Notes under the pieces: model-generated
The model's input: the letters and a program-made list of their open reading frames with translations, nothing else
What the model was told of the DNA's origin: nothing
Database searches by the model: none
Assembly (NCBI GenBank): GCA_027946365.1
Contig: JAPEUQ010000014.1
Coordinates: 1,116,001 to 1,180,000, forward strand
Origin: Kalmusia sp. IMI 367209
Taxonomy: Eukaryota > Ascomycota > Dothideomycetes > Pleosporales > Didymosphaeriaceae
DNA length: 64,000 nucleotides
Direction: 5' to 3'
Position numbers and translations under genes: made by a program
Shown here: positions 21,659-51,345 of the stretch, in pieces
How the letters are laid out: the number at the start of each line of letters is the position of its first letter
Numbering within the stretch: the stretch's first letter is position 1

Positions 21659-24600
21659 TTAGCCACTTCGACGCCACAGCCTTGATAATGTCTTCTTGAA
21701 GGAATCCGGTCCAGAGTGCAAATAGAATCCCACCGTGAAGACCAAAATATTGAAAATAATATAGATGAATAGAAGTCCAATATTCCTCCACCTATCTCCA
21801 TATACCATGTTAAGTGACGAGAGATAAACATCCGCCACCGACACGGAACAAAATTCGCAATCTTGGATTGCGTCAGGATTGTATATGGAAGCCATAGTAG
21901 AGTTTGCAAATGCGCCAGCATACTCTCCGCATGTTTTGCCTTGGGGTGGCTGGAACACGTTGATTTCGGCTGGCGCGCATCGAACCAGGACACCATGCGT
22001 GCCAGTAGTCATCAGAGCCGAGACTAGCCAAGTGAAGGGACTGACGTAATACGCAAAATGCCAAAATTTTACGAGCTGGCCGAGAGGCTGTAGGACGCCA
22101 CTAAATGCTAAGATGAAAGTGTAGAATAAGATGGTAGTCATGGCTGCTGTTTCGGGATTGGGTGAGACGATGGAAATTGCTTGGGAGAAGGTGGTGTGGT
22201 ACGCCTGGTACAAAAGAAAGACGAACAACATAATTCCGCTTCGACTGGCTGAGATATCGCGCCACCAGCCAACGGGAAAGAACCACGATATGAAGCAGAG
22301 TGTGGAAATGATAAAATTGAAAGGCAGCTCCACGATGACGTTGGCGACGAGGAAGACGCTCCAATGATACATGTTCGAGTGCTTCTCACGCACATCGTAA
22401 ATGTTTCGTAGGGCAATAAGGCGTGGTTGCAGGAGAAAGATGAGCGTGAGGCATAGGAGGAGGACTAGGAAGATCGCAAAGACTTTGTTCTGGAGACCTT
22501 GGATGGAGGTGGACTCTTTGTAGAATGTGAAGGCCATGAAAAGGCCACCAATAATGTTGATGAAGAGTTTGCCGTGAATATAAGCTGGTGAGCGCCAGTG
22601 TTGGGTGAAGAGCCTCTTTTGAACGATGCGATATTGGTGAAACCAGCTGACCGCAAAAGCTGAAGTGGAGCTCTGAGAGGAGAGCTGAGTATTCGCAGAC
22701 ATTGAAGATTCTAGCTGATGGATCCGAGACGTTACGGCTTGCCGTTCAGTCGACATACTCCATATAGAGGGCCAGTCCATAGTCGCTCGTCCAGACGCGC
22801 CAGCACCAACCTGTTCCAGCATATACTCAGCTGGATTGGATTTCTCTGGGCACGGGGGCGCGCCATATTGCTCAAAGTACGCGAGTACCTTCGTCGAGTC
22901 CCGACCAAGGTCACCAAAGTATACCGTTTGGCCACCACGAGCTAGAAGGAGGAGTCGGTCGAATTGATTTAGGAGCGTGGACGAAGGCTGGTGAATGGTG
23001 CAAATTATAGCTTGCCCTGCATTGGCCAAGTCGCGTAAAAGTTTCACAATGGACCATGCAGATTGCGAGTCTAGGCCCGAAGTTGGCTCGTCGAGGAATA
23101 GCAAGAGCGAAGGGCGCGCTACAAGCTCAATTCCGATCGTCGTGCGCTTTCGTTGCTCGGCACCAAGCCCTCTCCCTGGGCTGCCAATTACAGCATCAGC
23201 ATACTCATCCATATTCAACAAGGAGATGATCTCCTCAACGTAAACCTTTTTCTCGGAAACAGGTGTTTCTTTTGGCTGGCGTAATAACGCAGAGAATTGG
23301 AACGCTTCGCGCACAGTCATTTCTTCCATATGGATGTCCTGATGCAAGCAATACCCAGTCCTGCGTTTGAAATCGTTTAAGAGGGGAGCCCCGTTGACAG
23401 TTACATCTCCTGAAATGACTCCCGTGCTCACACGTTGGGCTAGAACGTTGAGCAATGTAGTTTTGCCTAAAGATTGAAAATTAAAGTCAGCTCATCTTTT
23501 AAGGTGCACCGCCAACATTCGATTTACGTACCAGCTCCAGAAGCGCCCATGAGAGCCGTAAGCTTTCCAGGCTCAACGAATCCTTGAACATCTTGTAGAA
23601 GCCTCTGATTCTCTCCCTTGATCTGAATGTCATAGTTAATGTGTTTCCAGCAAAAGACATCCTTGTTCGGCTCCAGTGCTAATTTCCGTTCACTGTGTTT
23701 CTCGCTGCCTACAGAATGGCACGACCTGGGCGAGGGTTTGCGGAAAACCATGTAGTTAGAAGTAGCATCGTCGAGCTTCTTAAACTCAGTTGTGAATGCA
23801 TAAAGGAACGTGAAACCGACGAAAAATACGACCGAGATGCCTAGGTTGCGCCAGATATTCGAGTAGTAATAATCAAAAGATAGCCCAATATAGTCGTCGC
23901 CCAAGACAAAGTCACTTCCGGGCTTCGCGCCAACAACAGTACAGACCTGATTGGCGACGTTAACATTTTCAAACCCAGGACCCGAGGGTATAAGCGACTG
24001 GCAGGGGGCTTTGCGTCCATGGAATTCGATGGCCATTAGCGCCTCAACAGTATAGAAAATCGGATTCACGTATGAAATCCATTTAAACCATGGATGCATG
24101 GATGGACGTGGAATTACGTAGCCTCCATACATGGCGAGTGGGAGAACTGTGAGTCCTGCGACTGCAAGCGCAAGTTCGATAGTATTCACGAGTCCAGCAA
24201 CGAAGCGAAACCAAGCCGTCATCGTCAGCGTTGTGAGATAGACGAATACCACAAAGAGAAAAAATGGCCCGACTTCCCGCTTGAGACCGGTCATAAAATA
24301 GACGATTACGGTAAAAACGAGGATATTCAGAGCCTTGAGCGGGAATTGTGATATCATAGTCGCGAGGGCGTCGATGTACGGGTGATACATGCCATAGGAG
24401 TGTTGTTTTTCCACCACCGGACGTTGGGAGAACTGAGCGGCAACCTCGGCAAAATTGACAATGATGTTGAATAGGACAATGAAGAATATGGCACCACCCT
24501 TTGAGAAGAATCCGCTTGTTCCCGGGTCAATGTCGAGAAACATAGTCCCTATCATCACCGGAATGACCAACATGGCAACGGTGATAGCGACAAAATATGC

Positions 24601-26013
24601 GTATTCTCCTCGGATACGTTGGAGAGCGCGATGGAAGGTGGTTACAAATTGCTGTGCAAGGTTGAGGCAGTAAGGAGATCGATGCCGGGTGATGGGCGCT
24701 TTTTCAGCCACAACATAGGCTTTGAATCGGGAGATCTCCGTCGAGACTCGACTACTCTCTGTCGCTTGTGTTTCGATCTCGAGTTGTAATTGGCGATATG
24801 CGTCACTTGCTTTCCACGTATCTGAGAACTCCGATGGTGTGCGAGGAACCCTGTGGCGGAAACCGCCCCGTACAACACATGCATTTCTGTCGGTGACAGT
24901 GACCAAGAATTCCGAAGTTGTCTGGCGTAAACCACATACAAATCCCAAGTCCTCGAAATAGGTTTTGGCAGCTTCGAGCGTGCCAAAGAAGACCTGGTGG
25001 CCTTGATAGAGTAGGGTCACCTTGTCGTAAAGGCTGGCAAGGGTATCGCTGGGCTGATAGAGAGCTGATATAGAAACGTTTGCTGTCAAATTGGTAGCAA
25101 CGCGGAGAGCCTCAGCAAAATCTAACGAGGTTGACGAGTCGAGACCGCGAGTAGGATTGTCCCAGCAGCTGACGCAGGCCCGAGCGAGCAACTATTCAAG
25201 ATAAGCGAAATGTTTACTTCAGTCACGATGTACCCGAATACAGCATACCATTTCCGCGATCGAAACCCTACGCCTTTCGCCACCAGACACTCCACGCACG
25301 AAGTCATTGCCTACACGAGTCTGTGCCGTGTGATTCAATCCGAACGTGGCGAGCAGGATTTTCCTTGTCGTTTTGATGTATTCTCGACGTGAAACACCGT
25401 GGATGCGAGTATGCGGTGCCTTCGTACTCGCAGCGAAATCGATCGTCTGCGCAACGGTGAGATACGGAAAATGTGTATCCACCTCACCATTAAATAACAT
25501 CATGCTTCGAAAGCGCTGGCGCATTGTCTCCAGCGGAATACCATTGTAGGTGATTAATCCGCTACAGCTTCGATAGTGCTCCGTGTGGCCAGCTAGCACT
25601 TTGAGCAGTGTGGTGCAACCGCTGCCAGGCGCACCGAGAACAAGTAACGTCTCTCCCGGAGCCATATAACCGTCAATTGAATTCAAAATTGTCTTCTCTC
25701 TCATTGGGCGCCAAAGACTCGGTAACTTAGAGACTATACCTGTGAGAAGGGAGCCAGCATCCTTTTGGGTGATCTGGTCTGCGTCCTCGCCAGTCACGGT
25801 GAGATTCTGCCAGCAGAGAGAGACGGGCGGAGAAAGAGGCTGAGCATCCTCTTGCGATCGGTCAATGGCGGCTCGGAGGGTTCGCTCGAGTGTCCAGTCC
25901 GGGTCGCGCACGTCGAATGGGTCGACAGCAGCGGCGGCTGTGCGGGACGCATAAGAGACGGTGCGGATGAGTTGGGAAACCCGCTCTTGTGATATCTCTT
26001 CTCCTTCGCGCAT
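21659..26013 (-). CDS. Full-size PDR-type (ABCG) multidrug ABC transporter
   Basis: Exons 26013-25249, 25191-23532 and 23466-21659 sum to 4233 nt, giving 1410 aa in the (NBD-TMD)2 order of fungal pleiotropic drug resistance pumps. NBD1 has the PDR-typical degenerate Walker A GAPGSGCTT (Cys in place of Lys), signature VSGGERRRVSIAE and Walker B-like CWDNPTRGLDSS. NBD2 has a canonical Walker A GASGAGKTT (split by the second intron), an LGAEQRKRTTIGIELVARP signature region and LLLFLDEPTSGLDSQSAW. Two sets of about six hydrophobic segments follow the NBDs, with extracellular Cys-containing loops near each end. It probably exports lipophilic compounds across the plasma membrane. It is divergently placed to a Zn2Cys6 regulator 437 bp away. 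No lesion was seen. Confidence 0.93.
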
Positions 26014-26450
26014 GGTTGATTAATTGACAGACAAGCAAATGTGCAAGGTAATCTGGGAGATGGAACGGCTCACTCTTATTGCTTGAGCCCTGATTGTATG
26101 CTCGGCCGGGGACGTCATAGCTTGAATGCTGATCAACGCCCAACATCCTTGTTGTGTCTTGTCAGAGCTGAACCATTGATCTTGTAGAAAACCAAGAACC
26201 GGTACGTAGCGAGGCATAGGTCGTGCTCATCGTAGGCGTACCAACCATCATGGCTGCGTATACATGGTAATGAGGTGAGAAAGAAACATGAAACTGCAGC
26301 TGCTCGGCTCTGAGCCTCTGCAGCAAGTGGGTCCACTAATGCCTGCATCTCTTCGGTTCCGAACGCCTTGTTCAACCCTCTCTTCTACCCTCCTTAGCAT
26401 CTCTAACATTTCGGACGATTTCGATTAATGTTAGTGATGAACTTTCCAAA
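26014..26450. promoter_or_regulatory. Shared divergent promoter of ABC transporter and regulator
   Basis: The 437 bp between the two start codons must carry both promoters. A shared promoter fits regulation of the pump by its neighbour, but no palindromic CGG-type Zn2Cys6 site was assigned with confidence. Confidence 0.4.
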
Positions 26451-28667
26451 ATGAGCGAGAGTGACCAACGAATGAAATCATGCGACCTGTGCAAAGCGCG
26501 CAAAGTGCGATGCAGAGGCGCAGGTACGTCTGTATTCATCTCAAGATATCTTTTTAATTCACTATACAGGGCATCGGGGGGCAACGAGCTGTATCAGTTG
26601 TGCTCGCCGCAATGTACAATGTCACTTCAGCCTGCTCCGGAAGCCTCGGCGAGTACCCATAGCATTAGGGGCCGCATCGCCAACAGTGAGAGAGGATACT
26701 CCGGAAAGTAATTATGAGATTACGAAGTACGACGGCTTGCAAGAGCTATACCTAGACAAGCTGCTCGCATGCACTCGCTCTGGATCGTCGCGGCAAATTC
26801 CCGGCGAGTCTCTCCAAGTGGGTTCGGCCGCAACACTTGCACGCTGTACTGATACAGTAAATAGACACTTGGGGTCTTTGGAGGCGAATATAGCCTGACA
26901 TTCTTTTCCGATGCGCGGTTGAAATCGCTTGAGCGGCGTCTTGGCCACGACCGCGTGTCGCGGATGAAATCCCAAATCTCCACGGTCATTGCTCAGCGCA
27001 TGCGGACCGTCGAAGGCGTTCCTGCACCGCCTGCTGATATTGATAGATTACGCATCTTTGGCTTGAACGGGAACTTCGTTACCTCCTGCATCCAAGGTAG
27101 TCTCGCTCAAGGATTCTCCCCGTCAGCAGGACAGTTTTCTGATAACGGGCATTAGCATACTTTGAGAACTTGCATCCAGTCCATCCATTCCTTGATAGGC
27201 AACATATCGAATCGATGGCACTCAGTCCACAACTGGAACACAAGCTCGGTTCCGACAAAGCCTGGTCTGTGCTTTTCTACGCCATCCTGGCCCTCGGGTC
27301 TCAATATCGTGATGGTGGGAGTTTTCAGCCTACCAACAACGTGGCCTGGAGGTTTTTCTCCACCGCATTGGCGCTGTTTCCTGACTTACTCATCACAAAA
27401 GCAAATCTGACCGTGGTCCAAGCCATTACTGTCATGGCGATCTTCGCATCCAACGTGTCGTGCATGCAGTTTGAGTACGCAATGGTCTCTGAAGGTGTGA
27501 AAAAAGGCCTAATGCTTGGATACAACCGATCACCAGCATCAGGACATGATGCGCGTAATCGCACGTTCTGGGTGCTGTATTGTCTGGAGAAGACTATGAC
27601 GTTTACGATAGCGAAGAGCTCTTCCATCATGGACCCGGACATCAGCAGTGCAATCCCAACATGTAGTGACCGGCCTATAGAACAAGCACCATTCGACTCG
27701 TTTCTTTCCTGGATCAGACTGTCGAGGCTACTGAGTCGCATATATGCGTCGCTCCACTCGGCAAGTGTGCGCGGCCGATCCGTGTATTACTTCAGAGCGA
27801 CCATCAATCATCTCAAAGAGGAGCTCGAGCAGTGGCGTACAACAATTCCTGCACCATTTCAGCCAGCCTTGCCAATGCGGAGCTATGATATTCAGACGGC
27901 GCAGACGATGAGTATTTGTATCCGGCTGCACTATGGATACCATAATATCATGCTACATCTCAATCGCGCTGTTCTCCAGCTACAGCATCTGGAGACCAAC
28001 GTCGAAGAAATTGTCTCTGACATTATGCATACAACGCGGTGTATTCTTGAATTGACAAAGTACATTGAAGTGCAGCCATATACACCGCTCTGGTAAGTGG
28101 CTTGCCCCTTTCCCGTTTCCGCACTCTACTCGTGCTCACAATCTGAATCCACCCAGGGTACTTGCAGCCGTGCCCCTCGCAGCATTCTTCGTCCTCTTCG
28201 ACCTCGTCGTCGACAACCCCACACATCCTGACACCTCCTCCAATCTCGCCTTACTCGATGTTGGTAGCGGCCACTTCAGCCGCATAGAATATGCGTCACA
28301 AGGAGTCTTACCAGGATCTATCCTCGCCGACTTCGCACATATCGCACGCTCCTATGTGCGAGAGAAGTCTGAACTTCAGACAGTCAATAGTCGAACAGCA
28401 TCCATACCCCCAAGTTTTCCTCCTACAGATGGAGAAACTACTAGTAGCCCACCAGTACAAATGAGCGGCGTACAAGTTCCAGTGAGTGTTGGGGGAGAAC
28501 CACGAGAGCAAGTGGGGTTCGCCCACTGGGATCTTCAAGGCGACGGAGGTCATATGGAAGGAACTGATATTCTGGATTTATTCGGTTCGTATTTTCCGGG
28601 GTTGGATGAAGAATGGTTATTTGGCCCTTTATCGACTAACGCTAGTACTGTGACGAGACATGAATGA
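26451..28667 (+). pseudogene. Zn2Cys6 transcription factor, apparent one-base frameshift
   Basis: Exon 1 (26451-26523) and exon 2 (from 26570) encode the binuclear cluster CDLCKARKVRC...CISCARRNVQC. Later parts form a fungal transcription-factor domain (YFENLHPVHPFLDR; exon 27156-28092 after a 59-nt intron at 27097-27155; last exon 28157-28667 after an intron at 28093-28156). Exon 2 (26570-27096) is one base short: the frame before about 26880 ends at a TGA near 26897, while GEYSLTFFSDARLKSLERRLG reads in the next frame. A 38-nt intron with GT...GGAG ends would also repair it but is unusually short with a weak acceptor. So it is probably broken, unless this is an unusual intron or a sequence error. 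It lies beside the ABC transporter it would be expected to control. Confidence 0.7.
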
Positions 28668-30012: not shown

Positions 30013-31560
30013 AACTAGACACCTGTCTTCACGACCACGACACGGAATCCGTTCTCTTGCCAGAAGCCCGCGGGCTTTAAGCTTCCGCGATACGAACACG
30101 TCGCCTTGACTTTGCCGCAGGAGAAATAGCCTCCATGTAGCACTCTTCGCGCAGCCTTAGCGCCTCAACTCCAAAGAAGCATGCCTCAACGCGACCTGCT
30201 CCGTCGGCCTCTTCTCGCGCAGTCGCTCACCCTTCGGCTGCTACGACATGACGGCCCAGGTCTGGAAATGGTGCAGCACGCTCTGGGGCGAAGACATGAG
30301 CTCCCCCTCGTTCGCATACCCCTAACGAGCCACCGACGGGCGTGGCAGCGTCGGTTTGCCATGCTGAACCCCAAGGTTACACAGGTTCACCTTTGACGAC
30401 TTCTTCTAACTTGCCACAGGATGCGCACTCCCATTCAGACTCTGTGGGCAGGCGCACTACTTCACTACCCTTGATTCGAGCAGTTGCGCGCCAGCGCTCT
30501 GTTAACCAGGCGCAGTAGGCGTTTGCATCGTACCATGTGAGGTCTGTCGCTGGAAAATTTTGTTTGTCGGGTACGCGAGCGACTGGGCTGCACCATTTTC
30601 GGGCACTTTCTTCCATGAAGATCAAGTAGTTCCGATTTTCAACTGGGTAGACTCCAACGCGATAGTCCACAGGGGAAACCGAGACTGGTAGTTGGCTATT
30701 GGAGTGGCTGTCTGAGCCCATGGTGAATATGCCCGCAGTGATAACGATGAGAATTCCGAGATTATGTAGATCTCCAGGGCGAGATAGGACACGGCCGGCT
30801 TTTTCACGTTCTGTGGTAGATAGGGTGCCTTGCTCGACTATCTGGAGAACTAGGGCGAGAGTTCGGGCTCGAAAGATGCTTGACTTAGCAATACTGAAGT
30901 CTGACACGAAAGGAGCGCAGCGTTGGGCATATTCGCTCTCCCCTTGGGTCAAGCCATCTACGAGGATGTGTGCTTAGGAGGATGTTCAGCGACGAGCAAG
31001 TCGGCTGTGAATGATCGGCTCCCAAATCATCGGCGCGCGGTGGAAGAGATTGACGACCTTTTTTTGCGGCAGCTGCAACAAGTGGCAAGCTGCTAGTAAC
31101 TGCTGTATAACGGCTAAGGACAGCATTTACTGAATTCTTTCTATGCGAAAGCCACCTATATGAAACATCTTCCGCGCACGATGCTGACTCGCGCTCGAAT
31201 CGCTTGATTGCTTGAGCTGCAAGTTCATCTGAACCATTTTCCCTCGGTATCATACCAACTCAACAAATCTCCCGACAGGAGAGGTATCTAGCGAAGTTCG
31301 ATTTGCCACTTCTGCTCGGCTCAGTTAGAAGCGTGATTTTACTATCCTTGACAACTTCTAGCGCAGTAATGTAAACGGCAGACTGGTAAATCATCCGGTT
31401 TGCGCTTGCACAGACCGTTAGTGGCGCGGTCTTCGAAAGTGTAATTCGTCAAGAGGGGAATGTAGGCTGTGGCAAGATCGATGGTACGGCTATCTGAGAG
31501 GGTGAGCAGTGGTTCGCAGCCGAAGTTTGAGCTGATGCTGTGCAGATATTGAAGTGGTTG
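30013..31560 (-). pseudogene. NACHT-FGE-sulfatase (NLR-like) relic
   Basis: Decayed minus-strand gene. From its 5' side: AYIPLLTNYTFED (about 31475), a P-loop KITLLTEPSRSGKSNFARYL (about 31350-31290) whose first Gly is replaced by Glu, a poorly preserved middle, then the sulfatase-modifying (formylglycine-generating enzyme, FGE) domain: ITAGIFTMGS, VGVYPVENRNYLIFM, FPATDLTWYDANAYCAWL, VRLPTESEWECAS (30952-30410) and the C-terminal GGYFSCGKVKATC...GFRVVVVKTGV with a stop at 30013-30015. Several stops and frameshifts separate the pieces. About 180 bp of the FGE domain lie on the opposite strand (separate entry). NTPase plus FGE proteins are known in NLR-like repertoires of fungi and bacteria. 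This copy cannot function. Confidence 0.75.
30163..30345 (+). other. Internal inversion inside the FGE relic
   Basis: The plus strand encodes the missing FGE piece: KEACLNATCSVGLF, RSPFGCYDMTAQVWKWC and LWGEDMSSPSFAYP. In family members this belongs between the DAA block (minus strand, near 30345) and the ARRVLHGGYF block (minus strand, near 30160). The minus-strand blocks stop exactly where this plus-strand block starts and ends, so about 180 bp have been flipped in place. Short GCC/GGC identities lie at both junctions. Confidence 0.8.
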
Positions 31561-33944: not shown

Positions 33945-35107
33945 CTAAAAACATGCGTTCACAATCCACATCAAGGACGTACCATTAACTTGTGGATCCA
34001 TACGGTGATGTGTTTCAAATCCCTGCTTCCGATTAGTATCAATGAGTCATAATGACCAAGTAGTTCCCGTTCAGGACGACGCCAACTCACATCAAATGCG
34101 TAGCTCTCAAGCACACCAAAGCAGTGGCTGATATGATTGTGGTCAATATCCCTAGGACAAACATGATGCCCCGACTCCCTCGCCTTCCAATACCTCTTCA
34201 TTGTAAGGACGCAATGCGCAACATGAAACTCATGGTCGATGGCGAGCGGATAGCTCCTTGTGTCGCGCCAGTAGCTCTCATTTAGATAAGATTTTGAGTC
34301 ACCGACTTCGGCGAACCACGGGTAGTATTTCGCATACCAGGCTTGGTACTGAAGTTCGAATTCATCGACGTATTCGGTAGGTATCATAGTCTGGTCGTCG
34401 AGACGAAGGTAAAAGTCGTCGACACTGCGATCGTTTTCAGCAGCCCAGGCCGTGAAGTTAGGATGCGGCCACGTGAACTGAAGCTGGTTCTGCGGGCCCT
34501 TGCTATCTTTCGGTAGATTCCAAGATAGCCAAATATTAGTATTGGGAGTGGGTTGATGAAGCGTCGCCGCAAGTGCAATACCCATCACAACAAGGATCAA
34601 TGCGGCAATGATGAAAGCGAGGTTCTTCTTGATGTAGCTGCGATATTTTTCGACGGTTGGGCGGCGACTTATTCCCCCATATGGGGATTCTTGGAGGGCC
34701 TGACGGTCCTGGTATGGTATGGTGATAGAATTCGCTGATTCGGCATTGATGCTCAAAATAGAGATCATGAAGGTCTTGTGTTGCGCTGTATTTTCATTCA
34801 CCGAGTCGTTTACATTACATAGGATGACCGCAGCTTCGACCCTGGACTGGCGAAGATGTTGTTCAAGATATGTCTGCGCTTCATCGAAAGTCCAAGACGC
34901 CGGCTCGAAAGCCTCGTGCGTCCATATGAGGAACGCGCCATTGCCGCAAACTTGTAAAAGGGTTCTATGGCCGCGAAATCCGCTGCAGCTTGCACACAGT
35001 ATGTCTCTGAGGTCGCTCGGTCCGTTGTGAAGATTTGGAGAAGTTGAGGAGATAATGCGCACAGTAGAGTGCTCGTCGTCTAAGGCGTCGCTGATATCCT
35101 TCGCCAT
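33945..35107 (-). CDS. UstYa-family (DUF3328) oxidase with long N-terminal extension
   Basis: The preferred model has exons 35107-34091 and 34022-33945, with a 68-nt intron (GTGAGT...AGCAG), giving 364 aa. Without splicing the frame stays open to 33971 (378 aa). About 160 cytosolic residues precede one membrane helix (LAFIIAALILVVMGIALAA). The lumenal part carries the paired UstYa motifs HVAHC and HISHC, spaced about 30 residues apart. UstYa-like proteins perform oxidative cyclisation or other oxidation of fungal ribosomal peptides in the secretory pathway. Members are usually about 230-290 aa and start close to the helix. The extra N-terminal region contains several Cys residues (LCASCSG) and matches nothing I recognise. 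Confidence 0.82.
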
Positions 35108-36458
35108 TGTGGTTTTTAGTGATATTGATGGCTAATGAACTTGTAGAGCAGGACACAAGACGAGTTGCCTATAGCCGGAAAGCTCGCACTCTGATTACGG
35201 TGGTATTGGCGCTGTTCCCACCTGTAATATGGCTTATATAAGTATCTAACTGTATAGATTCTCACGCCTCAACCACGTATCTCAAACGCTGCCTCGAATG
35301 TCTAGCTGTGTAAGATTCATGGATATTCAGGCACTCTACAGATCTCCGACCCCGCTATATACACTAGGCTAGAATCCTACGCACGGTTCACACTACGCTA
35401 TCTGTGTAAGACAGAACCTTGTGTCGCCATACTACGCTAAAGATGTGAACAGGGGCTGATATCCGGTCGTCGAGGACCGCCCCAGATCACGATTCAATGT
35501 AACGCATACTTTCACGGAATCTAGATAGGTAAAGCAGGCTTCCGGAAGGAAGGCTTGTAATTCCAAGTTCCTTGACCCCACAAACTCAAGGTCTTATCTC
35601 GATTTACCTCTGTACCGCTGGAGCCGAGTAGGTGCGTCAAATTGAGTCTACATTTTATGTCTCACAATGGTACTTGGCCCTGCAGGATAGTCTTCAACGT
35701 ACAAGCGCAATCGATAATGTGCATGACACAATCCAGAGTAAATCTTACGGAAGCTGCTGAACACCTGCTCTCGCGAGCAAAATGCAGCCTGTCGGAATGG
35801 GATATTCCGTCGCAATTCAGTTTACATGATTTCTAGCGCTGATTCTTATCTGTTCAAGATTCGACGGTCCGCAATTTTCTCCGAGACACGGAGCTCTAGG
35901 CTCCTGTATACACTATCATAATTACCGCAATTTTCATGCTATAGTTCTTCCGGCCGCGAAAATTGATTGGTTCGGGGAAACTCTTTATAACAAGTAGGCA
36001 TTGAAAGACTTCAATTGAAGATCACAACCAACTGGTGAGAAATGGAGTGCAGGCAAAACTTGGAGGGCGAACGACGGTATAGACGGCCCGTAAATTGATC
36101 TGGTGGTCCACATTGAGTTCCTACACCGAGCCGCAAATTTAGGGGCCAGTATGCACTGTAGCTGCATATGCACTCTGCATATTTCTGCACGATTCTCCGA
36201 CTCCTGTAGTCTTCGCGTTGCATTAGCAATTGCTCGTTATAGGATCGTTAGTCTGGGCTAGAGCTTATGTTACATCTCTAAGTCTTAGCCTCGAGCACAG
36301 AACTGATTGCCCCAATGGGGATATGCGTCGCATTGCAGATCACACGGCTCGCTAAACTGCTGCCGAATCAGTTTTCCCGCAAACCGGGTGTGCAGGTTTA
36401 CAGCATGCTGACCACTTCTAAACCTAATATCCACGATAGTTCAGCTACACCATTTGGC
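35108..36458. other. Intergenic region inside the cluster
   Basis: About 1.35 kb between two minus-strand UstYa-like genes. Small open frames only and no additional cluster enzyme recognised. It should contain the promoter of the gene at 35107. Confidence 0.45.
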
Positions 36459-37278
36459 TTACTCCGCTACAGCTTCGTTAGTGTTCAATGCAACACCTGA
36501 AATAGTTCCATATCCCGGTTCGCGAAACACCATTCCACAGTGCCTTATGTGAGCCTCAGTATCCGACCTCGGTTCGATAATCTTGCCATTCTCTCTTGTG
36601 CGATGTAGCTTCAGCCAATAGAAGAAACAGTGCGTTTGGTGCCAGTCTTTGTCCATGTGTACGCGTTTGGAAGAGTCGTCTCCCATCGCAGCAACTTTAG
36701 CGACATCGACTTCGATGGTGTGCTTAGTGTCTGCGTAGTAAATCCAAGTTCCATTTGGCCCTAGATAACAAAATTAGCTATGTGTCTAGGTATCTCTCAG
36801 GGTTGATTTTCTTGCCTTTTCCGGTCGTGTCAAACTCTGCGGTAAGCTCGTCGTCTCTGCAGTGCTCTGGAAGCCAGGCCATAGACAGCGCATCGAACTT
36901 GCATCCCCGTGCTATAGCTTCCGTAATTGATTCTCCGCAATCGCAGCCTTCAAGCCTGGGGTCATGGATTGTAAATGCTCTGGGGTGATGTCGATATAAC
37001 GCGAACACATGCTGAGCGATGTTGATGAAGCCCCAGAGTGCGAGCGAGTAAATGATTAGGCTTTTGAGAACGTAGAGATACCGATAGGGTGGTTGCTTCT
37101 TTCGAGACGTCTTTGTCTGTCCCCATCGTGGGAAGTCTCGCCATGACGAAGTCCGGATTGGAGATGATAGCGTATCTTCATCTCCTTCCGCTACAGCTTC
37201 CAGCCTAATACATCAGCTCTTCAAAATCTTGGTCCTCATAAAACATACTGTCACTTACAATCGGTATTTACTGTCCAT
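36459..37278 (-). CDS. UstYa-family oxidase, with a GC-AG intron
   Basis: Exons 37278-37259, 37204-36816 and 36760-36459 total 711 nt, giving 236 aa. A short N-terminus (MDSKYRLLEAV) is followed by one membrane helix (SLIIYSLALWGFINIAQHVF), a Cys-rich block (GCDCGESITEAIARGCKFDAL, WLPEHCRDDELTAEFD) and two metal-site-like motifs, HQTHC and HIRHC. The second intron has the non-standard donor GCAAGA with a normal TAG acceptor. A GC donor restores the frame and the family GPNGTW block exactly, while reading through hits a stop. This subtype has an N-terminal Cys-rich region unlike the other three in the cluster. Its start faces the plus-strand oxidase gene at 38160. Confidence 0.85.
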
Positions 37279-38159
37279 GTTACTAGTCTATGAGTATTTG
37301 TGAGCGGTAAACGGAGTCTCAGAAGGTGGACAAGATCGTAATGATGCTTTGGAAACTGAAGAATGTTAAAAACAGGATCTCCCATCAGATCAATTAGGAG
37401 CGGTGGGATCACTGACGTGCCAATAGCAGCTCCAAGCAGTGGATGGGGTCCAAGCTCTAATCACTGCCGGAGATAGACTAGCGGCTTGACGGCATTGAGG
37501 GAGCTGTGGAGCAGTTCGTACATTTCTGGCTAGAGGCAGACAACACTGTTTTGGCTCGATTAGCTCGATATGCTGTTTCGTGGCATTGACGCTATGACTT
37601 GGTGTAAACAGTGTACGTGCGCCGTTGTGGAACCCTTCCTGATGCTAACCATTTCGGGTATTGAGCATAGCAGTCTGATTGGCTTGAATCATGAATCACT
37701 CGTAAACTAAGCCCAAAGAGAAGCGCCACTAGGAGCCGAGACCACGCGTGAATACCCTGTGCGTGGGATCAGAGAGCATCGGATGAATGTCGCCGTGATG
37801 CTCTTAGCCTACCCGCACCTCATCGACTTGCTTATGATGTCGATAGCGGCTCGTTCGACGGCCGGGCCCACATTCCCATTCAGGTTTAGCTGCATGATCC
37901 TGCATGATCCTCCTGTAGTCGGCCGTAACTATGTTTCACAGGATCCCAGCTATTTTGTAGAGTGGTGCTGGGGTCAGCTTGTGGGAAGAAGACTGAATCA
38001 CAGCAACCGCAACACTGCCGTCTTTTTCTCGCCCTTGAACTGGGGAGAGCAGACAGAGTGCCAGTTCCGTCTGCCTTTGCCAACTATCTACAGGCCAGGC
38101 TTCATTCTTCAACCTTACTGAAAGTTAGTCCTCCTCCACATTTTCTCCTAGTCTCTGCC
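37279..38159. promoter_or_regulatory. Divergent promoter region between two UstYa-like genes
   Basis: 881 bp separate the start codons of oppositely oriented oxidase genes, so both promoters should lie here. No binding motif could be assigned. A few small open frames are not supported. Confidence 0.45.
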
Positions 38160-38955
38160 ATGGCGTCTAAAACAAAATACACTCAATTGGCCGACTCTAC
38201 AGAATTGGAAGATGGAGCAAGGCTTGAGAAGTCACGATGGGATGACGAAAGATCCGAACGACGAACATCAAGGCCATGGCTTCGCTTACAATATCTGCCA
38301 ATGTTCTTTGGTGGAATATTGATTGGGATCCTACTCAGCAGCGTGTCTATCCCTATAGGAAACGGAATCTTGAAAACAATTGAAAGTGCTCGTGAGAAGG
38401 CACTTTATCCAGATGCAAAAGATATCAATGAGTACTATGGTACAGTCCTAAAGCCAGGCGCAGACGACCCTATCTGCGGCAGCGATCGCCATGAGGCAAA
38501 GGCCAACGGCTGCCGTTACGATCTCATGGCATCTCGGTGAGAGCTATCCCACATTTCAGAAACTCGTCTCTCATGCATGAGTGTGCAACAGATGGTATCC
38601 CGACGAATGTTTTCACGAAGATGTGCTCGAACAATTTTTGCAGGAGGTCCATTTCGACTGGTACCGAGATCCGGAGCACACTGACCTCGTGTCTGTTGAA
38701 ACAGCTCTGTCGGGAGACTACGATAAACTCTACCCGCTCTATGATTTCCACATCATTCATTGCCTTTATCAGTTCCGCAGGCTACACATGGCGATTATTG
38801 AGCACCGCCAAATAGACGACGACGTCTTCAGCTATGGGCATACCGTTCACTGCACTAAGCTCATCATGCAGTGGCCAGATGAGATCAGGTATGGAAAGAA
38901 CACAACTACTCAGTCACCATCGGACGTTTCGTACTGTATCAAGCCGTTCCTTTGA
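38160..38955 (+). CDS. UstYa-family oxidase
   Basis: Two exons (38160-38536, 38592-38955; 55-nt intron GTGAGA...ACAG) give 246 aa. A Lys/Glu-rich cytosolic N-terminus of about 45 residues is followed by one membrane helix (LPMFFGGILIGILLSSVSIP). The lumenal domain contains Cys residues (DPICGS, NGCRYD, PDECF) and the two motifs HIIHC and HTVHC. The order Cys-rich segment, WYPDECF, DFHIIHC...YGHTVHC is the pattern of another UstYa subfamily. It lies 881 bp from, and divergent to, the preceding oxidase, and 1.2 kb upstream of the precursor gene on the same strand. Confidence 0.85.
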
Positions 38956-40139
38956 GGGCACTGGATGTCAGAGTTGACCGTAGATGATGCATGATGTCAT
39001 ATAATGTTACAGCCAGGTAGCAATTATATTATATAATGACATACATGACATTGTTTCTCACACGATGAAAATTCGTAATCTGGGTGACATGTGTATACAC
39101 TAAGGCCGGAGCGTTTGCTTTAGGTTCGTACCTTGAATAGCTGGGCGAAGTTCTGAGCACAATTTCTCCATTTTCGGAGCAGGAAGAGACTTGCTCGGTT
39201 CTGGAAAATGATCGACCGGAGGATCAAAGCTCAAGCGCTATAGTAGGACGTGGTGCGTGGTTGACCGCGCTGCCGAAGGAGTGCAATGTAACATTCAATG
39301 TTGAATCGAGGAGCCCCACATCATCTCCCACCGGCAGCTTCGCTGGAAGATTTGGGTTAACCCTATTTACGGCTTAAGCGTTGAAGTATACCTGCAGCGG
39401 TCAGACTCAGTCAAGTAGTGCATGTATCCGCATACGGTTAGTGCGGCTTACAGAGCGACGATTCGCCTCGAAGGAAATCCACCATTACCGGGAAGGCTGT
39501 CTCAGCTGATCAAGATAGCTACCATTAGCAGCATGTCCCAAATATTGGTAGATGACGCTGAACACCAATTGTTCGTGTTGCCAAGGGAATGGTATGACTA
39601 CATTGTCTGACCTCACGAGTGATCATCTCTAGTAGCTCCCAATGGCGTCAGCATGAACCAGTGCCCGTAGTATCCCACGCTACACTTTGAACTCGGATAG
39701 CTACACGGACTTGCATTCAACCTGTGCACGAGATACCACCGCTCCTTCTCCTTCCATGTTAGCGCTGGCCACGTGTTTCACCGAGCTGCCAGGTATTACG
39801 CAAACCTGACTTTTGATCTAGAGTGCCCCATAGCGGCAGGTGATATGCACCTGAACCGACGCGTGCGCTTGAATTTGGCCGCACATTACGTGTGCAAGTA
39901 GAACTTGCATGCAGAAAGTAAGCACGGGCTAGCTACTGGGATGCATCACATCAAGCCGGCGAAAAACCGGAGGTTGACATCTGAGCCGTACGAAGCGTCT
40001 AGGTATGCTCCTTCTCCTCTGTGGGAACTGCGCCTCTTAATTGAACCTGTCTCCTGATCTTTCTAGCACTCATCTGGCCCTTCTCCTGTCTTTCTATCAC
40101 AAACAATACTTCCCTCGTTGATCATTCAAGCACATCAAC
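38956..40139. other. Intergenic region upstream of the precursor gene
   Basis: About 1.2 kb with only small unsupported frames. The last 120 bp before the precursor ATG are pyrimidine-rich, as is common before fungal transcription starts, and the context ATCAACATGAA is a favourable start context. Confidence 0.45.
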
Positions 40140-40670
40140 ATGAAGAGTATCTCTGTATTCGTTCTTGGCTGCCTTGCCTTGCAGTCCTGGGCTCTTCCAG
40201 TTGACACTAGGGCTGTCGCTGTCGGACCTATCATCGAGGAAGCCGGTGAAGGCTACGAGAGCAAACGCGCCGTTGCTGTTGGTCCTATTATTGAGGAGGC
40301 TGGCGAGGGCTATGAATCGAAGCGTGCAGTAGCCGTCGGTCCCATCATCGAGGAAGCAGGTGAAGGATATGAGAGCAAACGTGCTGTTGCTGTCGGTCCT
40401 ATCATTGAAGAAGCCGGTGAGGGATATGAATCGAAGCGTTCTGTTGCAGTTGGTCCTATCATCGAAGAGGCCGGCGAAGGTTACGAGAGCAAGCGAGCCG
40501 TTGCCGTCGGACCTATCATTGAGGAAGCTGGTGAAGGCTACGAATCTCGCAAGCGCGCCGTTGCTGTTGGTCCTATTATCGAGGAGGCCGGCGAGGGCTA
40601 TGAAAGCAAGAAGCGCGCTGTAGCTGTTGGCCCGATTATTGAAGAGGCTGGTGAGGGTTATGAGTCTTGA
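40140..40670 (+). CDS. Kex2-processed repeat precursor of a candidate RiPP (dikaritin-like)
   Basis: A single exon of 176 codons. Residues 1-19 form a signal peptide (hydrophobic VFVLGCLALQSWA), followed by a short LPVDTR spacer. Then come eight tandem units with the consensus AVAVGPIIEEAGEGYES, separated by Lys-Arg. Unit 5 begins with Ser, unit 6 ends RKR, unit 7 ends KKR, and unit 8 ends at the stop codon without a dibasic site. The units are nearly identical in protein but use many different synonymous codons. Kex2 cleavage would release up to eight peptides of 17 residues, each with one Tyr, two adjacent Ile and four Glu. Four UstYa-like oxidase genes surround it, the known genomic signature of dikaritin-type fungal RiPPs. 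The product is unknown. A repetitive secreted or surface protein is the alternative. Confidence 0.9.
   Translation: MKSISVFVLGCLALQSWALPVDTRAVAVGPIIEEAGEGYESKRAVAVGPIIEEAGEGYESKRAVAVGPIIEEAGEGYESKRAVAVGPIIEEAGEGYESKRSVAVGPIIEEAGEGYESKRAVAVGPIIEEAGEGYESRKRAVAVGPIIEEAGEGYESKKRAVAVGPIIEEAGEGYES
40212..40667 (+). repeat. Eight in-frame tandem repeats of the precursor
   Basis: Unit length is 57 nt for units 1-5, 60 nt for units 6 and 7 (one extra basic codon each) and 51 nt for unit 8. Nucleotide copies differ mainly at third codon positions while the protein stays constant apart from the first residue of unit 5 and the added Arg or Lys. Confidence 0.95.
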
Positions 40671-41322
40671 ACAGTAAGTCTACTAAGACATCGGAATTCT
40701 TGAAACCTTGTGAGTTTTAATGCGTGGTAGCATGAGGTCACGTCTTACAGCAGCCGAAGAGTGAAAATGACTTCTTCATGAGAGCGTTTTCTTATCTTCC
40801 GATGAATTTCTGTTGATTCATCGAATTGGGATTTTGTATCGGTGTGGATGCGAGAGCATAGTGAAAGGGTCTCAGTCGAGGACTAAGAGTGTATCTCCAT
40901 TGGCTTACATATCAATGAATGAATTGTATGTGTTACATGCTATACTCGTTCTATCATAAAGACAAAATGACCTTCCCTTGACTTATATTCGCTTTCACTG
41001 TAGTTTTCAAGGTTCAGAGATGCGTCTTGCTTTTTTCCACGCCATGACTCTTTTGATATATCCAATTCAATCGTGAGTATAAGTTAAGAGTGGTGAATAT
41101 CATGTATACAGTGTGCATGACCTGCAAAAAAAGCCTCACTGATTATTTCGATCTTCTTACATTACAATGCCAGTATCAGGCTAAATGCAAATGGAAATAT
41201 ATGATTTCATTGATTTATAAACCAAACAGATGAAAAACACCGATGTTGATCCCAATTAGCCATGGACAGCATCACTACACAAAAATGCGGATGAATATAT
41301 ACATGTCTATTTGAAGCCCGGA
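40671..41322. other. 3' flank of precursor gene
   Basis: About 650 bp with no further coding pattern. A strong splice donor (GTAAGT) lies four bases after the precursor stop, so a 3'-UTR intron is possible. The rest is AT-rich. Confidence 0.4.
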
Positions 41323-42313
41323 TTAACGATCCTCCTCAATCAACTTCGATTCGTCAACCTTGTTTCTCGGTTTGCCCTCTACATCCGCTTTGTGGAAGTC
41401 GAAATTCTGCGGCAATAGCTGGCCACTTAGGTCCCAGATTGCCCTGTCGTTTGCCCAACCAGTCAAGGCGTCATAGTCGACGCAGCTATGCGTCTGACCC
41501 CAACCAGTGCTCTTGGTCCAGGAGCCTGTCTCACCCTCCAAAGTTGTATCGCCGGAACACAGAATGCCTATTGGGAACAGATTGTTAGTACACTTATTCA
41601 TGCGATGCCATTCGCGTCCAGAAGCGCTTACTCTGACGCAGATATTCAACACAATGGGATCGATGTTCCTTAATCTTGGGATTCATCTCCTTCCAGTCCT
41701 CGATCGAGGTTGGCAGAGATGTGGTGAGAATAGAAAGGCAATGCAGCTGGTGATATACAGCCATGATGTAGCCTTCGTAATGATCGCCGTCAGTCAAGAC
41801 ATCCCACATCTCGAATGGTGGATGCAGAACTTCGAAGTCATCGCTCGGCTTGACAGAGATGTACCCTCTGCCCTCTAGTAGTGATATTAGCACAGCCAAG
41901 GATCATATAGCTGCGGCTATTGACTTACTAGGAAAGAGTTGCTGCCAATTACGATGTATCCTCGCCATTTCCGTCCTATTCTGCAACATCTCCTGGTTGT
42001 TATATTCTATCGGTGGACCGAAACCAGCTGCATTACCCAGAATCACTTCTTTTCGGGGCAGAGTAGGCCCAAACTTGCGGTATTTCGTCTCACCATGCGA
42101 GAAATGTATTGAGCCTGATGCAATCAAGCCTAACAAGATTATTGCCAAACCTAGCTCTATGGCTACACGTAGGACGCTGAGATCCAATCCTAATGGTCGG
42201 CGAGGTTCGTCCATTGTCTTGATGCTTCCTCCAATGAAGCCTGCCCTCTCACTCTCGGAGGAGGCAGAGGTAGACTCAACGTCTTCGTATATGTCTTGCT
42301 TCTCAAATTCCAT
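41323..42313 (-). CDS. UstYa-family oxidase (classical type)
   Basis: Three exons (42313-41929, 41874-41632, 41567-41323) sum to 873 nt, giving 290 aa. About 45 cytosolic residues precede one helix (IELGLAIILLGLIASGSIHF). The lumenal domain shows the classical UstYa order: VYHQLHCL, then HRSHCVEYLRQSILCSGDTTLE, then GWGQTHSCVDYDAL. The two HxxHC motifs are thought to hold the catalytic copper. The Cys after the second motif and the GDTTLE block are typical of members in ustiloxin-type and phomopsin-type clusters. Both introns interrupt at the phases expected, the second just before the SILCSGD block. The gene converges with the precursor gene. It is the closest match here to a peptide-cyclising UstYa. 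Confidence 0.9.
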
Positions 42314-48745: not shown

Positions 48746-50174
48746 TTAGCGCACCATTAGGTCACATTATCGCTAATCTCAAATTGAACCAGGATATCAA
48801 GAGAACACGACGAGCAATGCTGGCACCGGAAACTTTATAATTTGATTTCGGGTTCAGCAAAGTGAGAATTTTACGATTCACAGCAAATTCTGTATCGATA
48901 GTATCTATCTGGACAGCTCCCTGACGGCATTTTCGCCATATCCATCGCATACAGGCCGTTCCAGCAGTATAAATAAGACAGGCTTATACGAGGAGTGCGA
49001 AAGCAGTGCCGAGTCTATAACATATGTCAGTGCACGGGGATATCTAGTGGCTTTCTGATGTACCTTAGCGACCATTGTTGCCTGGCAGTCGATTCGACGA
49101 CCTAACCATTGAGCTTTGAGCAGAACAGATGTGGAACGACAGTGTAGGCTACGCCGGGGGTGAATGAGCTTATCGTCAATGATACAGTGACCGCATACCG
49201 ATAATCCTTCTGAAGAGGGGCTCTGCGTGATATGATGGCTGTAGGGTTTGCTTTAGAGAATGATGGTCTGTAATTGTCAAGACCACTTTACCTCCTTAGG
49301 ATCTGTTGCTGGATGCAATCTTTGTCCTATTTGAATTGAAGTATTTTAGTAGACCTTTCATGGTCGCTCAGAGTCTTAGGGCATCAGACTTGAATTAATA
49401 AATTGTATAATTGGGGTATAGGCGTAAAGTAGAGGTTTTAATGTTTTGGACTAGCAAGTTGGAGGCTGCTGGGTATGTTAGGCTTTATCTTAAGATCATT
49501 GGCTATAGTATATTGACAGAGCGACAGCTGACCCCAACGCTCTGTTGCATTTACAGTCTTCCGATTATCGTTACACATGTTTTGGGTTGTCGTGCTGCAA
49601 GCACGCTCTCGGAGACTTTACTGGCTCACTCTGGGGCCGAGCAATTGTAATTGGCTAATGTAAAGTACCCGGGTGGCGGAGTAAATTAATGGACTGCAAA
49701 ATTATTTTTATAATTATTTCTATTTCATAATATTAGGTGGGCTATTTACAGTAGAAAGGATGTTATACATTATAACTTAGTATATATACGTGCTAAGAGA
49801 TAAGATGTTTAGAAGGTAGAGTACTTCTAAGCCTTGGCAGCGACTATCACCACATGTCATGGCGTGTGATTCGCTGACTACTTAGCGTTTGAACGAAAAA
49901 GAGCCGAACTCCAGACCCCGCTTCTCCTCTTTGCCCAGCCATCTTATCTCCAGACCTTGCTAAATTGCGCACATCGGCCTCGACTTTCCGAACGAACTGT
50001 TAAATTTGCCTCCTTGGGTAATTGGTGGGTAGAGCCAGGCGTAATCTAGACTAAGCTCGGAGTTGACGACGTGGGTGTGTACATGACGTTCATTGACATA
50101 AAAGCGCAATGCATCCCATTGCATCTTCATCTCAGCAACGTTTCCTCTTCCCCATTCCGCATACAAAACCAAAG
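48746..50174. other. Gene-free region with an AT-rich tract
   Basis: No gene recognised. 49650-49830 is strongly AT-rich and looks like eroded repeat DNA. The final 250 bp become GC-richer toward the oxidoreductase promoter. Confidence 0.4.
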
Positions 50175-51345
50175 ATGGGCTTTGATCCTCCCCAGAACGT
50201 CGTTGTCATCGGCGGTGGTATAGTCGGATCATCCATCGCTTGGCATCTCTCCCAATCATGCACCACGAACACCACCATCATCGCAGCTCAGATCGGAGGC
50301 ATTGCAACACCTAACTCTTTCGCGTGGGTAAACGCGGGTTCCACCGATACCAAGTATTACTACGATTTTCGATACCGGTCCATGAACCGATGGCGCCAGA
50401 TCGAGAAGGAAATACCTGGACTCTCCAAGTACATAAAGTGGGGTGGGTCCACGAACTGGGATATCGAAGATGAAGAAGAGCGGGCTGCGTATGGGGAGAA
50501 GTTGAAGGGGTGGGGTTACGATGTTGTGACGGTAAATAAGACGGAGATAGAAGCGAACTATGAGCCTGCGTTAAGTGAGGGTTTGCTGCCGGATTGGGCG
50601 TTACGGTATACGGAGGAGGGACAGATGGAGGCTCATATCGTTGCCGAGAAACTGATTGAGGAGGCACAGGCTAATGGTGCAGCACTACTGGAGGCGAACG
50701 TCACTTCGTTCCTGAGGGGTGAGGATGGTCGGATCACAGGTGTAGTGGTTGAAGGAGGCCAAGAGGTGCAGGCCGACCATGTCGTTTTGGCTGCGGGACT
50801 GGGGAGCGTAGATCTGCTAGCTACGGAGAATGTGACTTTGCGTAAGTGGAAAGGCAAACTGAGCTTAAAGGAGATCTAGCTGACAATACACAGCCTTGAC
50901 GCCGAAAGCAGGTCTGCTTGTGAATACTGCCCCAAGCAAGAAACGACTTCTTAATGGCGTTGTTAATGCGTTTGAGCTACACCTGCGGGAGACAGAAGAC
51001 GGTCGTATTCGCTCTGGATCTCAATTTTCAGGCTCGCCGCCGGGCGACGACCCGCAAGTAACGGCAGACGAGCTGTTCGCAAAGATAAAAGGCGCCTTCA
51101 AGGATGGTGACGAGTTGACATACGACTATTATACGATTGGTTATCGGCCAACACCGCAAGACGGTCTTCCAATCCTAGGCGAGACGGGCGTGAAAGGCTT
51201 GACGGTTGCAGTCATGCATTCTGGTGTTTCTAACGGGGCTCTTGTTGGAGAGCTGGTGAGCAAGCAGGTCTTGACAGGCGAAAAGGATCCGGCGCTCGCC
51301 CACTTCCTACTGTCGCGCTTCAGTAATGAAACAGCTGCCGCTTAG
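50175..51345 (+). CDS. FAD-dependent oxidoreductase (DAO superfamily)
   Basis: Two exons (50175-50841, 50894-51345; 52-nt intron GTAAGT...ACACAG) give 372 aa. The N-terminus carries the FAD-binding VVVIGGGIVGSSIAWHLS (GxGxxG) motif followed by an NSFAWVNAG segment. The C-terminal part has YRPTPQDGLPILGE and VAVMHSGVSNGALVGEL, the usual flavin-contact blocks of D-amino-acid-oxidase/glycine-oxidase-like proteins. No signal peptide is seen, so it is probably cytosolic. The substrate is unknown; amines or N-methyl amino acids are typical for the superfamily. The ATG at 50175 is preferred because it lies directly before the Rossmann strand; an in-frame ATG at 50109 would add 22 residues. Intact and isolated. 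Confidence 0.87.

What the first reader, a model, noticed from the sequence alone, without database searches (positions are those of the whole stretch)
33945..42313. Candidate dikaritin-type RiPP cluster: repeat precursor plus four UstYa-like oxidases
A secreted precursor with eight Kex2-bounded repeats is enclosed by four UstYa-family genes (33945, 36459, 38160, 41323), with no unrelated gene between them. This is the signature of fungal ribosomal peptides such as ustiloxins and phomopsins (established). No tyrosinase, methyltransferase or FMO gene was found, so if active it would be a minimal pathway. The core repeat has no resemblance that I recognise to described cores, which makes a new product likely (inference).
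Basis: partly seen in the sequence, partly recalled or inferred. Interest (0 to 1): 0.93.

Follow-up and report, generated by a model that had tools for sequence, protein, structure and literature searches.

The report
Fungal repeat-peptide cluster with oxidase genes
A fungus carries a small gene cluster that very probably cuts one repeated ten-residue peptide out of a secreted protein and modifies it with likely copper-dependent oxidases; the class is known, but this peptide was in no paper I could search and three of the four enzymes fit no Pfam family model.

Summary
At 40140-40670 (+) lies a 176-residue repeat protein with eight [A/S]VAVGPIIEEAGEGYES units parted by Kex2-type sites. Four intact genes beside it each carry two HxxHC motifs 29-30 residues apart. 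Correction: only g4 matches Pfam UstYa (E 6e-29). g1, g2 and g3 do not; profile comparison makes them remote relatives, g2 and g3 one family.

The repeat is selected: all 17 codons vary silently between copies, with one amino-acid change (pS 0.87, pN 0.01). PIIEEAGEGY is identical in 26 of 27 repeats of seven precursors, including named Pleosporales and Helotiales species. In this genome 5 of 5 other regions with a g2-type gene also hold a UstYa match and a different repeat precursor.

Best reading: a dikaritin-type RiPP cluster without tyrosinase or S41 peptidase, making an oxidised, perhaps Tyr-crosslinked peptide. No product, expression or copper binding was shown. Against it: none of the three named species with the precursor appeared among the g1 or g2/g3 search hits, and g4 relatives were not searched. 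What is new: a core kept across two fungal classes and HxxHC proteins that the Pfam model misses.

The parts
40140..40670 (+). Precursor gene, 176 aa, single exon: hydrophobic N-terminal signal (MKSISVFVLGCLALQSWALP, by inspection, no predictor run), then eight 17-residue repeats
   Evidence: one match in the genome
40212..40667 (+). Eight repeats [A/S]VAVGPIIEEAGEGYES with KR (5), RKR (1) or KKR (1) between them; invariant decapeptide PIIEEAGEGY
   Evidence: pS 0.87, pN 0.010; 26 of 27 repeats in seven precursors
41323..42313 (-). g4: canonical UstYa protein, 290 aa, 3 exons; HQLHC at 41752 and HRSHC at 41665 (29 residues apart)
   Evidence: PF11807 E 6.1e-29, 101.9 bits against a cut-off of 25; motifs
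38160..38955 (+). g3: HxxHC protein, 246 aa, 2 exons, no Pfam match; HIIHC at 38749 and HTVHC at 38839 (30 apart)
   Evidence: relatives 84% identical in Bimuria novae-zelandiae and 79% in an unnamed source
36459..37278 (-). g2: HxxHC protein, 236 aa, 3 exons, no Pfam match; HQTHC at 36641 and HIRHC at 36551 (30 apart)
   Evidence: 102 hits to the g2+g3 profile at E <= 1e-10; same family as g3 by hhalign
33945..35107 (-). g1: HxxHC protein, 364 aa, 2 exons, no Pfam match over cut-off; about 150 residues before the membrane helix; HVAHC at 34225 and HISHC at 34135 (30 apart)
   Evidence: relatives P0008-P0012 at 58-73%; the tail of P0012 supports the second exon

Best explanation
A Kex2-repeat/UstYa (dikaritin-type) RiPP cluster. 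The precursor enters the secretory pathway, the fungus's Kex2 cuts at the KR/RKR/KKR sites, and trimming brings each unit towards PIIEEAGEGY. Membrane-anchored HxxHC proteins facing the Golgi lumen, g4 and its relatives g1-g3, use a binuclear copper site and O2 to oxidise the peptide, most likely joining the single Tyr to the beta-carbon of one of the two Ile residues (loss of 2 H). Shown here: gene structures, repeats, selection on the peptide, motif pairs, remote family relations, gene partnership within this genome. Inferred from relatives: Kex2 cutting, copper, oxidation. Guess: the Tyr-Ile bond, the trimming ends, the division of labour between the four enzymes.
For: g4 is UstYa. All four genes carry HxxHC pairs 29-30 residues apart. 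hhalign: g2 family to g3 family 99.6%, g2 to g1 94.7%, UstYa to g2 84.5%, to g1 65.6%, to g3 63.4%; in a rerun real scores were 39-157 and reversed or column-permuted ones at most 24.7. 8 of 68 g2/g3-family proteins match PF11807 at E <= 0.01, best 1.8e-4. 5 of 5 other g2-type regions hold a PF11807 match and a repeat precursor. One match to the proprotein domain of Kex2 in the genome. HxxHC(x)nHxxHC is a binuclear copper site in CctR (PMC12435403, parts 1 and 2 of 3 read). Epichloecyclins join an N-terminal Ile to an internal Tyr (PMC9233826, passages).
Against: No product, transcript or enzyme data. g1-g3 have no Pfam match over cut-off. Ophiobolus, Dothidotthia and Cudoniella, the three named species with the precursor, are absent from the 8 g1 hits and from the 102 g2/g3 hits at E <= 1e-10; Bimuria and Tricladium, which have g3 relatives, gave no precursor. 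Both searches depend on shared words and on annotation, so absence is not shown, but it counts against a fixed set. No search was made with g4. DUF3328 genes also serve polyketide and non-ribosomal pathways (PMC12048977, section 22). The core is unlike YxIx. No S41 peptidase, tyrosinase or kexin match in the window. The g1 paralogue on C12 has no repeat precursor seen in the 11.1 kb read around it.
Confidence: 0.7

Rival explanations
1. The repeats yield an unmodified linear secreted signal or effector peptide; the oxidase genes lie nearby by chance or serve another product.
For: 78% of 7878 Kex2-repeat proteins had no DUF3328 gene near (PMC7329392, passages). The core is unusually conserved, as for a signal. 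The three named species with the precursor are absent from the g1 and g2/g3 hit lists.
Against: Four HxxHC genes within 6.2 kb of the precursor. About 72 PF11807 gene-like groups in 42.8 Mb make one within 1 kb by chance about 0.6% (my arithmetic), and g2-type genes are far rarer. 5 of 5 other g2-type regions repeat the partnership.
Confidence: 0.16
2. A relic cluster, no longer made.
For: No expression data; silent clusters are common in fungi (general knowledge, no call).
Against: All five reading frames are open with standard splice sites (one GC-AG); pS is about 85 times pN between repeats; g1-g3 keep the residues that are invariant in their families.
Confidence: 0.07
3. RiPP cluster as in the best reading (so this overlaps it), but g1-g3 do other oxidations (hydroxylation, desaturation) or are non-catalytic partners, and the product is not a Tyr-Ile macrocycle.
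For: UstYa homologues of phomopsin also desaturate residues (PMC10512285, passages); CctR hydroxylates.
Against: None specific; cannot be separated by sequence.
Confidence: 0.4

Closest known systems
Ustiloxin B and phomopsin clusters (dikaritins)
   Same: Signal peptide, Kex2-bounded repeats, DUF3328/UstYa genes beside the precursor (2 and 5; PMC7329392, passages)
   Different: Core is PIIEEAGEGY, not YAIG/YVIG/YVIP; Tyr last, not first; no tyrosinase match in the window
Epichloecyclins (gigA cluster, Epichloe)
   Same: Repeat precursor, DUF3328 gene, Ile ahead of Tyr as partners (PMC9233826 passages; PMC7317419 passages)
   Different: The four-gene gigA cluster holds its own kexin gene and one DUF3328 gene; here no kexin match in the window and four HxxHC genes; repeats of 27, not 17 residues
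CctR, cyclochlorotine hydroxylase
   Same: HxxHC(x)nHxxHC, membrane helix, lumenal helical domain (PMC12435403, parts 1-2 of 3); the model of a g2 relative puts the two motifs on two helices
   Different: Acts on a non-ribosomal peptide; dimer and copper shown there, not here
Dikaritin clusters of Venturia inaequalis
   Same: Several precursor-plus-DUF3328 clusters in one genome, nine there (PMC9632046, passages); at least eight precursor-plus-PF11807 loci here
   Different: Their cores were not compared; V. inaequalis has a g2 relative at 54% (P0034), context unknown
Kex2-processed repeat proteins at large
   Same: Repeat architecture (PMC7329392, passages and section 6 part 1; PMC6339444, passages)
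   Different: Most of their types were found in a single genus; this core spans Pleosporales and Helotiales

Membership tests
Dikaritins (Kex2-repeat precursor + UstYa homologue; definition from PMC10512285, passages) | Secreted precursor with Kex2-bounded repeats | tested here: met
   signal peptide judged by eye
Dikaritins (Kex2-repeat precursor + UstYa homologue; definition from PMC10512285, passages) | At least one UstYa/DUF3328 gene beside the precursor | tested here: met
   g4, PF11807 E 6.1e-29, 0.65 kb from the precursor
Dikaritins (Kex2-repeat precursor + UstYa homologue; definition from PMC10512285, passages) | Peptide cyclised by UstYa homologue(s) | not testable with these tools
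   needs LC-MS
Ustiloxin/phomopsin subtype | YxIx core | tested here: not met
   core PIIEEAGEGY
Ustiloxin/phomopsin subtype | Tyrosinase gene in the cluster | tested here: not met
   0 of 37 genome matches to PF00264 lie in C6:1116001-1180000
UstYa (PF11807) for g1, g2, g3 | Match over Pfam's cut-off | tested here: not met
   0 of 3; 8 of 68 g2/g3 relatives match at E <= 0.01, best 1.8e-4; Pfam column empty in 102 of 102 rows
UstYa (PF11807) for g1, g2, g3 | HxxHC(x)nHxxHC | tested here: met
   3 of 3, 30 residues apart; spacing 30 in 8 of 8 g1-family rows P0007-P0014 (P0007 is the window's own g1) and in 80 of the 88 g2/g3 hits that have two motifs (102 hits in all); 24-38 in 13 own-genome UstYa
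UstYa (PF11807) for g1, g2, g3 | Copper binding and O2-dependent oxidation | not testable with these tools
   shown for CctR in the paper read
UstYa (PF11807) for g1, g2, g3 | Same fold as a solved UstYa structure | tested here: inconclusive
   no PDB sequence match at E <= 1 for g4 or g2; no Foldseek match under E 0.001 for the model of a g2 relative; g1 model too poor, pLDDT 39.6

The most novel reading that the evidence does not exclude
g2/g3 (and g1) are a second branch of HxxHC copper oxidases, missed by the Pfam model, that works only as the obligate partner of a UstYa enzyme, forming a mixed binuclear-copper dimer dedicated to ribosomal peptides; here the partnership makes one modified decapeptide, PIIEEAGEGY, kept unchanged across two fungal classes, hence a conserved signal and not an arms-race toxin.
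Probability: 0.2. Interest if true: 0.75.

Novelty: new variant of a known kind. Interest (0 to 1): 0.55.

Why it matters
A partner family that sits with a UstYa match and a repeat precursor in 6 of 6 regions of this genome (own window included), but that PF11807 does not catch, would be overlooked by mining that relies on PF11807/DUF3328, and could mark precursors that are hard to see. A core kept identical across Pleosporales and Helotiales is unusual for a class in which most precursor types were found in a single genus and points to a conserved role that can be tested. The CctR authors hypothesise an accessory protein for electrons or Cu(I); g2 and g3 are candidates.
Full report
Setting. 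The window is G000:C6:1116001-1180000 of an unnamed assembly of 42,784,582 bases in 30 contigs. Spliced genes, fungal Pfam domains and near relatives in Pleosporales make it an ascomycete, probably of Pleosporales (inference; no marker gene was compared).

The precursor. 40140-40670 (+) encodes 176 residues: a hydrophobic start (by eye a signal peptide) and eight units of 17 residues. The copies differ at silent positions in every one of 17 codons but in one residue only (Ala to Ser, position 1 of repeat 5): pS 0.87, pN 0.010 over 28 pairs (pS is saturated and includes serine codons that differ at more than one base). So the peptide, not the DNA, is conserved. The genome search gave one match. 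A search of 5.77 billion proteins gave six relatives at E <= 0.001 (only the 7997 candidates sharing most words were scored, lengths limited to 0.55-1.75 of the query): Ophiobolus disseminans, Dothidotthia symphoricarpi, Cudoniella acicularis and three without an organism name. In these and the window's own, 27 units match P[IL][IL]EEAGEG and 26 read PIIEEAGEGY; the exception is PILEEAGEGY, last unit of Cudoniella. The five residues before Pro vary (such as AVAVG, SLGTT, SMAVG, SMATK) but stay five in number, and what follows Tyr varies; in P0006 two units run straight from Tyr into RRR or KR. Pleosporales and Helotiales belong to different classes. Seven strings from this peptide occur in no paper of the 5.39 million searched; figures, supplements and papers outside that library were not searched.

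The enzymes. g4 is UstYa by Pfam, E 6.1e-29; g2 and g3 have no Pfam match at E <= 1 and g1 only one far below cut-off. Each of the four carries two HxxHC motifs 29-30 residues apart; the window has 15 HxxHC in six frames against a mean of 3.5 in 100 shuffles. CctR, a DUF3328 enzyme, uses this motif pair as a binuclear copper site, needs O2 and electrons, is a dimer, and is thought to face the organelle lumen (PMC12435403, parts 1 and 2 of 3).

How g1-g3 relate to UstYa. hhalign: g2 family to g3 family 99.6%, E 2e-24; g2 to g1 94.7%, E 6e-8; UstYa to g2 84.5%, E 7e-6; UstYa to g1 65.6%, to g3 63.4%. Rerun with first-sequence columns, the five comparisons scored 39-157 (UstYa to g2 then 67.8%), while the reversed and the 20 column-permuted versions of each scored at most 24.7. 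Apart from g2-g3, the aligned part is the stretch with the motif pair. 8 of 68 g2/g3-family proteins reach PF11807 at E <= 0.01; the 13 own-genome UstYa proteins all do, as expected since they were picked by PF11807. So remote kinship is likely and membership in PF11807 is not met. Spacing separates them too: exactly 30 in 8 of 8 g1-family rows, one of them the window's own g1, and in 80 of the 88 g2/g3 hits with two motifs (102 hits in all; 11 have none, 2 have one, 1 has four); 24-38 in the 13 UstYa.

A model of the g2 relative P0016 is confident (mean pLDDT 86) and puts the motifs on helices 177-197 and 208-219 after one long helix 51-92. No PDB relative was found. g1 has about 150 residues before its membrane helix; its one own-genome paralogue, on C12, matches from residue 31 on at 27%. 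Relatives P0008-P0012 are 58-73% identical.

Partnership in this genome. The g2 search found 9 further matches in five regions (C4, C25, C26, C27, C29); the g3 search found 7 further ones, all in the same regions. All five hold PF11807 matches and a Kex2-type repeat precursor with an unrelated core: four by a scan for at least two 5-mers present three or more times plus three dibasic sites, the fifth (C27) by a looser scan and by eye. Distances: precursor to g2-type match 2.4-3.2 kb, to PF11807 match 0.5-1.5 kb. For comparison, of 20 UstYa loci held (of 102 matches), 16 lie in no g2-type region, and 2 of those 16 show a repeat precursor within about 1.5 kb (C7, C30); more sequence was read around the g2-type regions, so the rates are not strictly comparable. 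The genome has about 72 PF11807 gene-like groups in 55 regions, a lower bound. Several such clusters in one genome are known: nine in Venturia inaequalis (PMC9632046, passages).

Linkage elsewhere. A g2 and a g3 relative (P0016, P0017) come from contigs of the same length, 3980 bases; g1 and g2 relatives pair likewise at 3184 (P0009, P0107) and 705128 bases (P0008, P0108). This suggests, without proving it, that g1-g2-g3 stay together. No precursor relative shares a contig length with them.

Against. None of the three named species with the precursor is among the 8 g1 hits or the 102 g2/g3 hits at E <= 1e-10, although g2 relatives of 50-60% identity were found in many annotated fungi; Bimuria and Tricladium, with g3 relatives, gave no precursor. 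Word-based searches and missed gene models may explain this, or the precursor may there work with other enzymes; g4 relatives were not searched. The g1 paralogue on C12 has no repeat precursor seen in the 11.1 kb read (frames under 90 residues were not listed). DUF3328 genes also serve polyketide and non-ribosomal pathways (PMC12048977, section 22). No tyrosinase, S41 peptidase or kexin match lies in the window; the one kexin-type match is on C11. Methyltransferase and FMO genes were not searched genome-wide; 19 window ORFs outside the cluster put to Pfam showed neither, but did show an FAD-dependent oxidoreductase (50097-50879), a P450 and a peroxidase far from the cluster.

Mechanism. Kex2 cutting, trimming to about PIIEEAGEGY and oxidation with O2 and copper follow from the relatives. 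Ile near the start and Tyr at the end of the core fit the epichloecyclin pattern (N-terminal Ile to internal Tyr; PMC9233826, passages) better than the ustiloxin one. That bond is a guess.

Verdict. A real, probably working, dikaritin-type cluster with a new core and enzymes outside the Pfam model: a new variant of a known kind.

Noticed in passing
L008, L013, L016, L017, L045, L048, L054 (own genome C4, C7, C26, C30, C29, C25, C27): Seven further Kex2-type repeat precursors with unrelated cores, some cut by the locus ends, each within 0.5-1.5 kb of a PF11807 match.
   Followed up: partly
G000 whole genome: About 72 PF11807 gene-like groups in 55 regions, many more than the precursors seen so far.
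   Followed up: no
P0019 (Colletotrichum melonis), 377 aa: One annotated protein with four HxxHC motifs: a g2-type protein followed by a second g2-type domain without its own membrane helix. A real fusion, or two genes annotated as one; if real it fits the paired-subunit idea.
   Followed up: partly
L043 (C12:3947228-3948244): g1 paralogue with a similar long N-terminal part, on a contig without PF11807 matches; a neighbour looks like a MutS homologue (recognised from memory, not searched).
   Followed up: partly
window 21659-26019 (-), 27146-28667 (+), 30377-30973 (-): PDR-type ABC transporter, fungal transcription factor and an FGE-sulfatase-domain gene near g1; export and regulation of the cluster is possible, untested.
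   Followed up: no
P0002, P0004: Two precursors carry extra short units (such as AVAVSPIIAPIEKR) between the PIIEEAGEGY repeats.
   Followed up: no
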